From the NCBI GenBank assembly GCA_027603065.1, contig JADGJP010000008.1:660665-724664 (forward strand): DNA of 64,000 nucleotides, given 5' to 3'. Positions 60,491-63,644 of the stretch are shown in pieces; within the stretch, counting starts at the first letter, position 1; every line of letters begins with the position of its first letter. The notes under the pieces are model-generated. The model made no database searches and was not told where the DNA came from. It saw nothing but the letters and a program-made list of their open reading frames with translations. Origin of the DNA: Geranomyces variabilis (lineage: Eukaryota; Chytridiomycota; Chytridiomycetes; Spizellomycetales; Powellomycetaceae). The translations under genes were made by a program, and so were the position numbers.

Positions 60491-60499
60491 ACAAAGCTG

Positions 60500-60571
60500 G
60501 GGCTCGACCGGGGCTTGAACCCGGGACCTCTCGCACCCGAAGCGAGAATCGTACCACTAGACCATCGAGCT
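60500..60571 (-). tRNA. tRNA-Pro (anticodon CGG)
   Basis: A complete intronless cloverleaf: D arm GGTCTAGTGGTACGATTC, anticodon stem-loop CTCGC-TTCGGGT-GCGAG with CGG at 60539-60537, T arm CCGGG-TTCAAGC-CCCGG. Internal A box (TGGTCTAGTGG) and B box (GGTTCAAGCCC) are intact. The acceptor stem pairs AGCTCGA with TCGAGCC except the first pair, which is A1 opposite C72. The first 24 nt are repeated in the adjacent array. Confidence 0.92.
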
Positions 60572-61013
60572 CACTATGACTCTGAGAAATCATTCTGCAA
60601 CGTGAGTCTGAGAAATGCAGACTGTGTATCTGGCGCTTGCTGTCTTCTCCGCTCGAGATCGTACCACTAGACCATCGAGCTCACTATGACTTTGAGAAAT
60701 GCTTCTGATAGGTGACGCTAAAGAATGTGGGCTGTCTCTTTTGCATAAGCTGCTTTTCTCCGCTCAATATCATACCACTAGACCATTGAGCTCCCTATGA
60801 CTCTGAGAAATCACTCTGAAAGGTGACTCTAAGGAATGTACATCGTCTATCTTGCGCATGCTGTTCTTTCCGCTCTATGACTCTGAGAAATCACTCTGAA
60901 AGGTGATGCTAAGGAATGTGGGCTATGACTCTGAGAAATCACTCTGAGAACTGAGTTTGAGAGATGAAGGCTGTCTCTTTTGTGCATGCTGTTCTCTCCG
61001 CTTGAGATTGTAG
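60548..61013. repeat. Tandem array built from the tRNA-Pro 5' half plus flank
   Basis: Units of about 110 bp: 60548-60656 (starting inside the tRNA), 60657-60767, 60768-60874, and a composite 60875-61013. Units 1-3 each carry the minus-strand tRNA 5' end (forward strand GTACCACTAGACCATCGAGC, with TACCACTAGACCATTGAGC in unit 3), then CACTATGACTCTGAGAAAT, a GTGACTCTAAGGAATGT-like segment and CTGTTCTCTCCGCTCGAGAT-like ends. Unit 4 lacks the tRNA part but repeats CTATGACTCTGAGAAATCAC twice. So the duplicated unit is a 5' tRNA fragment with its upstream flank, including the A box but not the B box. Confidence 0.85.
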
Positions 61014-61416
61014 CAATTTTTAGTTTTTTTTGGCCATCATATGATTACAACCTTTCAATAAAGCCAGAAGTATTTCTATTCTGTATTTGCTGGATATGAA
61101 AGAGAACAAACATAAATACTTGCGCACAATTTCCGCTGTGTTGTAGCCTCGCATCCGCTGGAAGTCCAAATGTCATTGCGTGCTTCCGACAGCGCATGGA
61201 GACTCTCCCCAGGCGTGGTCACGTGATGCCCGCGGCTCAGCCACCGCGACCGGATCCCGGCTTTCGTCGTCGCCCGTCAAGCATCCTCTGCCAGATCATC
61301 AACGTCCACTCGACACCAGCCCCGAGCCCGCTGAACGCACTGACTATTATATACCCGGCTGGCCTGTAACGTATGTCAATCTTGCATCGAACAAGCGCCG
61401 CCGCCCGCACTTTGAA

Positions 61417-63644
61417 ATGAGGCGCGCAGATACCCCGTCGGCGCCGCGCCAGCCGGACAGCCAACAGCCAGTAGACAACGCAACGCCGGAGCAGAGCCGC
61501 CAACAGCCTCACCATGGGCCGTCTCAGCAGTCTCAGCAGTCTCGGCAGGGCTCGCTTGCGGTCGAAGAAGTTGGCAATATACCCACGGCACGCAAGCGGA
61601 CCCTACCTGATGCCTTTGATCCGCCAGGCGGCCTTCAACAGCCAGTGCGGCCGGCAGTGGATCACCTTATCACCGGGTATACCTACTGATTAAACACCTG
61701 GTCTTGGACGGTGTATTTCATGTGCATAGTCCCTGATCTCTTGTCTCGCGCAGACCCTCTTTCCGCCCGTATTCAGCTTCGATGCAATCACCGTACAATA
61801 CGATCCCACAGGCTGCGGGTTCGTATAATACCGCCCATCAACCTGCCAACATGCATCATCACCATCATCATCATTCCTTTGGAAATTTGAATGATCCCCA
61901 GCATCACCAGCGGCTGCTTCCGCAGCTAAATTTCAGTGCTCAGCGTCACCAAAACTTTCCCGGCAGTTCTGGTGTGTCTAGCTATACCCCCCATGCGCCG
62001 CAGCAGCAGCATCATCAGCAGCGCCTGCCGTATACCCCACCATCTACATCTTTCGGCAACCCGGTGTTTCCTGCGCGCGCTCAACAATATCCGTCTCTGC
62101 AGCCGCCGCTGGCGCAACCTGCACAGCAATCTCAACATCAGCATCAGAAGGCGGAATCGGTTTCGTCACACAAGCTGGCGAAACTGACGAGTAGCGATAA
62201 CATTACGGCTGCGGCTGCCGAGGCCGATGCCCTCAATATTGGTGGCGAGCATGATTCACCAGAGCCGGACCCAAGTAAACGCGTTAAAGGGCTCCGCCAC
62301 TTCAGCAGATGCGTGGCAGAAAAAGTTCAAGCCAAAGGAACTACAACCTACAATGAGGTTAGCAGAAGACGCAAGTGGCTGTTATCTGCGTGTAGGATTG
62401 TGGGATGCCAATTTTCGGCTTTTGACTGAGCCACGTAATAAAACTTGGTGTCCAGGTTGCTGACGAACTAGTGGACGAGTTTACTACCCAGGCGCGCAAT
62501 GCTGACTCGGTAGGCTCCGACCGCATTCAATTTCTACCGGTTGGCGCAGGATTAATTAATTAATCGCTTGATTTGCCAGTACGACCACAAAAATATCCGC
62601 AGGCGTGTATACGACGCGCTCAACGTTCTGATGGCGATGGGCATCATCGCCAAAGCCAAAAAGGAAATCCGGTGGATCGGACTACCGACGGAAGGTTCTT
62701 ACCAAAGGGACTTGGAAGCGCTTCAGGTTTGTCGCGTCTGTAGCGGCTTATTCCTCAACGCGCTGCCATACTCACCAACTCTTTTCTCTTAGCGGCGCCA
62801 GAAAGAGCTTCTCGTACTCACGGCAGCTGAGCGAGAGGCCGGGGAAATCTCCGCCAGAAGGGTAATAAATTGCTCTCTTGGTTTACTCATCCTCTTATTT
62901 CCCCCTTTAAATGAGATTTTTTCTTTTTGATTAGCAATACCTACTCAAAATGCTTGCTAAACGGAATAAGCTCGAGCAAACGCAACGAGCCAATCTCCGC
63001 ACAGAAAACAGTCTTGAGCCGATCCTTGGCCCCCAGGAGGCTGGCGAAGGCATTATGTTGCCTTTTCTCCTACTGCGGTCCACTTGCGATGCTCACGTCG
63101 AAATCGAGAACACCGACGATAAGTCTCAATTCATGATCAGCTTTTCGAAACCATTCCATATGGTTAAGGACATGGAAGTTGTGTCGTCACTTTGTGAAGG
63201 TGATTATGAGAGGGGCAAATCCTTGCTCTCCAGGTCTCCGAGCGAGAGTCAATGGCAGGGCAGTCATACACCGTACCCCTTGGACCCGGGCACTCAGATT
63301 GATTCAGAAGTGTATCAACAACGGGCGCAGCAAAAGAGCTTTTCGAACGAGTCGCGGAACCCAGCTGGTAGGCGAATATGGCAGACTTATCATGGTTCAC
63401 GGGACGCTAACTGTGTGTCATTGCAATTGCAGTTTTTGCTGTACCTTTTCCTGCACGAGTTGGAAGCGTAGCGCTAAGTACTCCCTTGATATCTTCCGCT
63501 GCCCCGCCGGTTTTCGTGGAGCCCAACCCGCTGGAGATTGGCCGCACCTCCTCGCAATTCGATTTCTCGCAGCCCATGCAACAATCGACGAGCGTTGGTC
63601 ATTCGAGAAGCATCCGCTCGAGATCCCCCGACTTCTTCGGGTAG
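61417..63644 (+). CDS. TFDP: DP transcription factor (E2F dimerisation partner)
   Basis: DP heterodimerises with E2F to control G1/S genes. Exons (61417)-61676, 61754-62357, 62456-62509, 62580-62726, 62793-62861, 62935-63367 and 63433-63644. The winged-helix domain reads [55 protein letters not shown] and KEIRWIGLP, diagnostic of DP ([11 protein letters not shown]) rather than E2F. The dimerisation region follows: [15 protein letters not shown], then [20 protein letters not shown] and [12 protein letters not shown]. The N-terminus is His/Gln-rich and the C-terminus Ser/Pro-rich. The start is unsure: the frame stays open and protein-like back to ~61180 without an ATG, so an upstream first exon is likely; 61417 is the first in-frame ATG. 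Confidence 0.9.

What the first reader, a model, noticed from the sequence alone, without database searches (positions are those of the whole stretch)
60500..61013. Tandem repeat seeded by the 5' half of a tRNA-Pro gene
Next to an intact tRNA-Pro(CGG), ~110-bp units repeat the tRNA's first ~24 nt (with the A box but no B box) and its upstream flank three times, with a fourth partial copy. It looks like repeated duplication of a breakpoint inside the tRNA. This may reflect stalled replication at a Pol III gene, a tRNA-targeted insertion scar, or an emerging SINE-like/minisatellite family, and could yield 5' tRNA-half transcripts.
Basis: seen in the sequence. Interest (0 to 1): 0.72.

Follow-up and report, generated by a model that had tools for sequence, protein, structure and literature searches.

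The report
Tandem arrays seeded by tRNA starts
In this small eukaryotic genome the front parts of several different transfer-RNA genes have been copied again and again, head to tail, just upstream of the intact gene, which suggests that these genes repeatedly trigger local DNA duplication.

Summary
The array is real: units of 110, 111 and 106 bp plus two partial pieces run upstream of tRNA-Pro(CGG), and each full unit carries tRNA nt 1-24. It is not a one-off. The same array opens contig C27, while C32 ends at an identical tRNA-Pro(CGG). Arrays of the same build lie upstream of tRNA-Arg(ACG) (67-nt units), tRNA-Trp(CCA) (49 nt) and tRNA-Arg(TCG) (about 113 nt): ten array loci and two remnants. 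In 56 evaluable tRNA genes, upstream copies outside a Lys cluster were sense 5' parts of the gene's own amino-acid family; two weak cross-matches apart, no 3' or antisense copies were seen. Searches with Pro, Arg and Trp arrays found copies only at such loci, so it is not a SINE. Best explanation: recurrent cis tandem duplication with one break in the anticodon arm (clear for Pro, Trp and Arg-TCG, uncertain for Arg-ACG), then minisatellite-like growth; slippage at a TFIIIC-bound gene is the likeliest trigger, but inferred. A selected Pol III role is less likely: nine arrays are nearly terminator-free, the tenth is not. Ten paper searches showed no description of it.

The parts
60499..60571 (-). 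intact tRNA-Pro(CGG) gene that anchors the array; its 5' end is at 60571
   Evidence: ARAGORN; Rfam RF00005 47.2 bits; identical gene at C2:314178-314250
60548..60657 (-). unit 1, 110 bp: tRNA nt 1-24 (belonging to the intact gene) plus its 5' flank
60658..60768 (-). unit 2, 111 bp: second copy of the tRNA head (24 of 24 nt identical) plus flank (61 of 86 identical to unit 1)
60769..60874 (-). unit 3, 106 bp: third copy of the tRNA head (22 of 24) plus flank (67 of 81 identical to unit 1)
60875..60923 (-). partial unit, flank part only, no tRNA head
60924..61015 (-). distal partial unit, flank part only, ending in GAGATTGTA near the unit boundary
60797..60830 (.). 13-bp subrepeats inside the flank part of a unit
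   Evidence: TRF row; family D2

Best explanation
These are cis-acting, tRNA-anchored minisatellites. At a tRNA gene a segment running from a point in the 5' flank to a point inside the tRNA was duplicated in tandem, leaving an intact tRNA at the downstream end and a copy truncated at its 3' side upstream. Later slippage, unequal exchange and gene conversion multiplied and homogenised the units, sometimes as dimers (Arg-ACG types A and B, Trp types T1 and T2) and sometimes losing the tRNA head. Shown: tandem anatomy, sense orientation, own amino-acid family, 5'-part content, recurrence at tRNA-Pro(CGG), tRNA-Trp(CCA), tRNA-Arg(ACG) and tRNA-Arg(TCG). The break lies in the anticodon arm for Pro, Trp and Arg(TCG); for Arg(ACG) it is uncertain. 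Inferred: the trigger, most likely a nascent strand that has copied the upstream flank and the tRNA's first 25-35 nt, is halted at TFIIIC-bound DNA ahead of the B box, and slips back to the flank. Inferred too: that the arrays are mostly by-products.
For: Upstream head copies in 7 of 56 evaluable tRNA genes outside the Lys cluster (Pro CGG 1, Pro TGG 1 and weak, Trp 1, Arg ACG 4); no own 3'-half copies upstream outside that cluster. Head copies belong to the gene's own amino-acid family and none is reverse-complemented outside the Lys cluster, at score 15 or more, with one cross-match to a Ser head and one to an Ala tail, both in one Arg array. Arg(TCG) on C89, not among the 57: TRF 114 bp, 3.0 copies, ending at tRNA nt 31; head score 24 against at most 13 in 1000 shuffles. 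Spacing: Trp 49, Pro 110/111, Arg(ACG) 67 at C12, C32 and most of C27. Searches with Pro, Arg(ACG) and Trp arrays match only tRNA loci, contig ends, unread bases or decayed units farther upstream of the C32 Arg gene; the tool skips simple repeats and scores only best candidates. Similarity to the tRNA ends at nt 24-29 in 4 of 4 Pro units, is first maximal at nt 33-35 in 5 of 5 Trp units and at nt 31 in 2 of 2 Arg(TCG) units. tRNA genes as fork barriers and fragile sites in yeasts, with pausing in rrm3 mutants lost when TFIIIC is removed: PMC5368702, passages read.
Against: The same passages say that budding-yeast tRNA barriers arrest forks moving against transcription, which would copy the 3' half first, that the pause sequences may not be highly recombinogenic, and that wild-type fission yeast tRNA genes are no recombination hotspots, though their barriers are non-polar. 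In Arg(ACG) the extension gains score beyond nt 35 in 8 of 15 units, reaching nt 48-61, with 0 to 8 of 60 shuffles gaining as much; a banded test gives joint p = 0.011 though a tRNA-Thr scores slightly higher. The Pro(TGG) remnant aligns from nt 8 to 47 (15.0 against at most 14.5 in 1000 shuffles). So some units may be longer decayed copies. Units nearest the tRNA are not consistently the most tRNA-like, and spacing is irregular at C4, C33 and part of C27. Array-free Pro(CGG) and Trp genes exist.
Confidence: 0.5

Rival explanations
1. The arrays are selected Pol III regulatory cassettes: each unit supplies a start-site-like CAA(A) motif and an A box upstream of the single B box, either loading extra TFIIIB or giving 5'-half RNAs.
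For: Nine arrays hold one TTTT in 3746 sense nt against 9.6 expected from dinucleotide shuffles, 0 of 300 shuffles as low. In 25 Arg(ACG)-type heads G10 and C11 never vary and position 9 is a purine in 24, while 12 and 13 vary. Pro units 1 and 2: head 24 of 24 against 61 of 86 for the rest, Fisher p = 0.0016.
Against: The tenth array, at tRNA-Arg(TCG), holds two TTTT per unit, six in all, so freedom from terminators is not general; I lowered this rival from 0.2 to 0.12 for that. Copies are related, so the counts are not independent; heads were selected by similarity to the tRNA, and one of the 25 is out of register; conversion by intact tRNA genes would also preserve heads. Units 1 against 3 show no significant head excess (p = 0.35). 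Array-free Pro(CGG) and Trp genes exist. No fold signal in units, but the intact tRNA itself gave only z = -0.98 in that test, so it is weak.
Confidence: 0.12
2. A mobile element targets the anticodon arm of tRNA genes and duplicates the 5' half at each insertion; the spacers are remnants of the element.
Against: That p is the best of 12 cross-family pairs; the other three Pro-Arg pairs give 0.08-0.28. No spacer copies away from the arrays in the searches made; no longer insert seen in the arrays read.
Confidence: 0.08
3. tRNA-derived SINE family at an early stage.
For: A box and tRNA-derived head; A-rich ends of several units.
Against: No B box in Pro and Trp units, no dispersal found, head-to-tail only, arrays tied to their own tRNA.
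Confidence: 0.03
4. Assembly artefact.
For: The second Pro array lies at contig ends (C27 start, C32 end), and the C33 array runs into unread bases.
Against: C78 units differ from unit 1 by 18-29%, and the C78, C15, C89 (two), C12, C4, C27 (43 kb) and C32 (199 kb) arrays are internal to contigs.
Confidence: 0.02

Closest known systems
Minisatellites (VNTR arrays)
   Same: head-to-tail units of 49-114 bp, apparently non-coding, internal subrepeats (Pro), higher-order dimers (Arg-ACG, Trp), decayed distal units (C32)
   Different: one end of each array is fixed inside a tRNA gene, and this recurs at four isoacceptors of one genome
tRNA-derived SINEs (features recalled)
   Same: tRNA-like head with an A box
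   Different: no B box in Pro and Trp units, no dispersal found, cis and own-family, tandem only
Permuted or split tRNA genes (recalled, not searched)
   Same: separated tRNA 5' part in the genome
   Different: an intact gene is present, no separate own 3' half seen, several 5' copies
tRNA genes as replication-fork barriers and fragile sites in yeasts (PMC5368702, passages read)
   Same: Pol III genes as places of fork pausing and rearrangement
   Different: the passages I read do not describe tandem arrays built from tRNA 5' parts

Membership tests
Minisatellite | tandem head-to-tail units of roughly 10-100+ bp | tested here: met
Minisatellite | copy number varies between individuals | not testable with these tools
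   one assembly only
tRNA-derived SINE | internal A and B boxes | tested here: not met
   units hold the tRNA head with the A box; extension ends at nt 24-35 for Pro and Trp; Arg(ACG) has at most a decayed B-box remnant
tRNA-derived SINE | dispersed copies across the genome | tested here: not met
   for Pro, Arg(ACG) and Trp arrays; not searched for Arg(TCG); the search scores only best candidates
tRNA-derived SINE | target-site duplications and a shared 3' tail | not tested
   no isolated copies to test
Permuted or split tRNA gene | 3' half encoded separately from the 5' half | tested here: not met
   outside the Lys cluster no own 3' half within 700 nt upstream of 56 evaluable tRNA genes; one weak tail-like match (13) downstream of L070
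Structured non-coding RNA family | more stable fold than shuffled sequence | tested here: inconclusive
   z from -1.9 to +2.0 for units and dimers, but the intact tRNA gave only -0.98 in the same test; Rfam at gathering scores finds only the tRNA in the window

The most novel reading that the evidence does not exclude
The genome carries a class of Pol III promoter arrays: tandem A-box-bearing tRNA 5' parts upstream of tRNA-Pro, tRNA-Trp and two kinds of tRNA-Arg gene, kept by selection and either read through into the gene or ended at internal T-runs, giving a reservoir of 5' tRNA-half RNAs or tuning the downstream gene. (Lowered from 0.15 to 0.1 because the Arg-TCG array is rich in terminator-like T-runs.)
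Probability: 0.1. Interest if true: 0.85.

Novelty: new variant of a known kind. Interest (0 to 1): 0.6.

Why it matters
If tRNA genes repeatedly seed duplications with the break in the anticodon arm, this genome holds a natural record of where replication or repair fails at Pol III genes, readable from sequence alone in relatives and strains. If the A-box heads are selected instead, it would be an unusual multi-A-box Pol III promoter and a genomic source of 5' tRNA halves.

Tried and rejected
SINE: disfavoured on dispersal and B box. Structured RNA: no fold signal in units, but the tRNA control was weak too. Shared mobile spacer: only weak similarity; within a family, Arg A and B spacers do resemble each other (0 of 1000 shuffles) and Trp T1 and T2 marginally (p = 0.046). 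Full-length decayed tRNA units: no support for Pro(CGG), Trp or Arg(TCG), open for Arg(ACG) and the Pro(TGG) remnant. Exact 24-mer of the Arg spacer in viral contigs and genome contigs: 0 matches each (viruses, and bacteria and archaea, so this says little). Two further genes, which I read as tRNA-Asp and tRNA-Glu from the anticodon, showed by eye no head copy in about 200 nt upstream. A first split of arrays by fuzzy regular expression under-split them, one script stopped on an error, one BLAST script printed nothing, and one Pro unit was lost to a slicing error; redone. Ten paper searches: nine worded for this phenomenon, of which seven listed nothing and 32 and 58 listed unrelated papers (a fission-yeast genome; mostly mitochondrial tRNA papers); one search was for background. 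From those listings I read passages of one paper only. Only open-licence PMC papers were searchable.

Full report
Observation. The minus strand at 60499-60571 encodes tRNA-Pro(CGG). Upstream of it, that is rightwards on the + strand, lie head-to-tail units: 60548-60657 (110 bp, containing the gene's own first 24 nt), 60658-60768 (111 bp), 60769-60874 (106 bp), then two partial pieces without a tRNA head to about 61015. The head is identical in 24 of 24 positions between units 1 and 2 while the remainder is identical in 61 of 86 (Fisher p = 0.0016); between units 1 and 3 it is 22 of 24 against 67 of 81 (p = 0.35).

Genome context. The window is G000:C78:660665-724664 and ends at the contig end; the genome has 23.83 Mb in 91 contigs. 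It is eukaryotic: the window encodes COG7 and an E2F/DP domain at 62580-62726 whose only PDB match at E up to 0.001 is transcription factor DP-2 (1cf7_B). From memory E2F/DP is absent from Dikarya, which would suggest an early-diverging fungus or another small eukaryote; the species is not established.

Second Pro locus. A unit search finds only C78 and the first 321 bases of C27 (with the C27 array gives the same two contigs). C27 begins inside an array of three units, the first cut by the contig end; their tRNA heads share two changes from the gene. C32 ends at nt 2 of an otherwise identical tRNA-Pro(CGG). The two ends probably flank one broken array, but this is inferred. Another identical tRNA-Pro(CGG), C2:314178-314250, has no array in 1500 nt upstream. 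tRNA-Pro(TGG) on C17 has one upstream remnant (head score 13.5, 0 of 1000 shuffles as high; against the whole tRNA it aligns from nt 8 to 47, 15.0 against at most 14.5 in 1000 shuffles).

Recurrence. I took 57 ARAGORN tRNA genes from fetched loci and asked whether the first or last 30 nt recur in up to 700 nt on either side. One record (L044, at a contig end) was not evaluated. Of 56, upstream head copies were found in one tRNA-Pro(CGG), one tRNA-Pro(TGG; weak), one tRNA-Trp(CCA) and four tRNA-Arg(ACG) genes, and in a cluster of complete tRNA-Lys genes, which also gave tails and antisense hits and is ordinary. Own tail copies were otherwise absent upstream; the nearest thing to an exception was a tail score of 13 downstream of L070 (head shuffles there reached 10.5). 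Comparing 33 distinct heads and 36 distinct tails with the upstream regions at score 15 or more gave, outside the Lys loci, heads of the gene's own amino-acid family in sense, plus one Ser head (16.5) and one Ala tail (15.0), both in the L069 Arg array.

A fourth isoacceptor. The Trp search also hit C89:527362.

Anatomy of the others. Arg(ACG) arrays alternate two 67-nt unit types, A and B. They occur at C27:43 kb, C32:199 kb, C12:397 kb and C4:312 kb beside tRNA-Arg(ACG), at C33 where the array runs into unread bases so that no tRNA is visible, and as a remnant lacking the first part of the head at C14. Spacing is 67 at C12 and C32 and for most of C27, irregular elsewhere. Decayed units reach 2.2 kb upstream at C32. 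Trp arrays of 49-nt units, T1 and T2 alternating, lie at C15 and C89:179 kb; a third tRNA-Trp at C34 has none in the 368 nt upstream that I hold. That makes ten loci with arrays (two Pro, two Trp, five Arg-ACG, one Arg-TCG) and two remnants. In 290,931 nt of held sequence (loci mostly chosen for tRNAs, some overlapping, C89 loci not included), TRF gave 21 rows with period 30 or more, by my count 13 distinct arrays, of which 7 are these.

Breakpoints. By anchored extension (which redoes) the similarity to the tRNA ends at nt 24-29 in 4 of 4 Pro units and is first maximal at nt 33-35 in 5 of 5 Trp units; one search gives nt 31 for 2 of 2 Arg(TCG) units. For Arg(ACG), 7 of 15 units gain nothing beyond nt 35, and 8 of 15 gain 1 to 5 points, reaching nt 48-61; 0 to 8 of 60 shuffles gain as much. 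A banded test of the consensus A and B 3' parts gives joint p = 0.011, but a tRNA-Thr scored slightly higher than tRNA-Arg. Arg(ACG) units may therefore have begun as longer copies whose B box decayed; I leave it open.

Is anything under selection? Nine arrays hold one TTTT in 3746 sense nt against 9.6 expected from dinucleotide shuffles (0 of 300 as low); upstream regions of 43 array-free tRNA genes hold 0.67-0.92 per 100 nt, and the arrays' own distal flanks 0 to 1.19. But the Arg(TCG) array holds six TTTT, two per unit, so this is not a rule. In 25 Arg(ACG)-type heads (one, C12 -316, evidently out of register) G10 and C11 are invariant, position 9 is G 13, A 11, T 1, and positions 12-13 vary. 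Copies are related, heads were chosen by similarity, and conversion from intact genes would have a like effect. Units do not fold better than shuffled sequence, but neither, clearly, does the tRNA in that test (z = -0.98).

Mechanism. The sense, own-family and 5'-part pattern is what a local tandem duplication leaves when the copied segment ends inside the tRNA: the intact gene stays at the downstream end and every further unit ends in a truncated head. A nascent strand coming from upstream, halted ahead of the TFIIIC-bound B box and slipping back to the flank, gives this directly. Fork pausing at tRNA genes and its dependence on TFIIIC in rrm3 mutants are in the passages that I read of PMC5368702; those passages also say that budding-yeast barriers arrest forks moving against transcription, which does not fit this direction, that the sequences may not be highly recombinogenic, and that in wild-type fission yeast, where the barrier is non-polar, tRNA genes are no recombination hotspots. 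I hold the duplication model at about 0.5 as stated with its trigger, and more firmly without it.

Novelty. In ten searches of open-licence PMC papers I saw no description of tandem tRNA 5'-part arrays upstream of tRNA genes. Subscription papers were not searchable. I class it as a new variant of a known kind: minisatellites with one end anchored in tRNA genes.

Noticed in passing
L086 (C89:527300-528000): tRNA-Arg(TCG) carries a third-kind array of 113-114-bp units ending at tRNA nt 31, with two TTTT per unit, unlike the other arrays.
   Followed up: partly
window 60499-60571; C2 and C17 tRNA-Pro genes: The tRNA-Pro genes read begin with A where my reading of the acceptor stem pairs it with C (A1-C72); the C32 copy is cut before nt 1. 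Rfam score of the window gene is only 47.2 bits.
   Followed up: no
window 62580-62726: E2F/DP winged-helix exon (Pfam PF02319 E 1.2e-11; PDB DP-2 E 1.2e-16), about 1.6 kb from the array.
   Followed up: partly
downstream of tRNA-Arg(ACG) in L067, L069, L070: A hairpin-like run of G and C (GGGGGCTTNCGCCCCCC followed by ACACCCCC) follows three tRNA-Arg genes, suggesting shared ancestry of these loci.
   Followed up: no
L083 (C33): A 50-bp array made of the Arg B spacer without most of the tRNA head, about six copies, runs straight into unread bases.
   Followed up: partly
L070 590-984 (C32): A separate 66-bp, six-copy tandem array about 1 kb downstream of a tRNA-Arg gene, with a different consensus.
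   Followed up: no
G000, RVT_1 search: Sixteen reverse-transcriptase matches in the genome (one under the curated cut-off), five in frames over 1000 aa.
   Followed up: no
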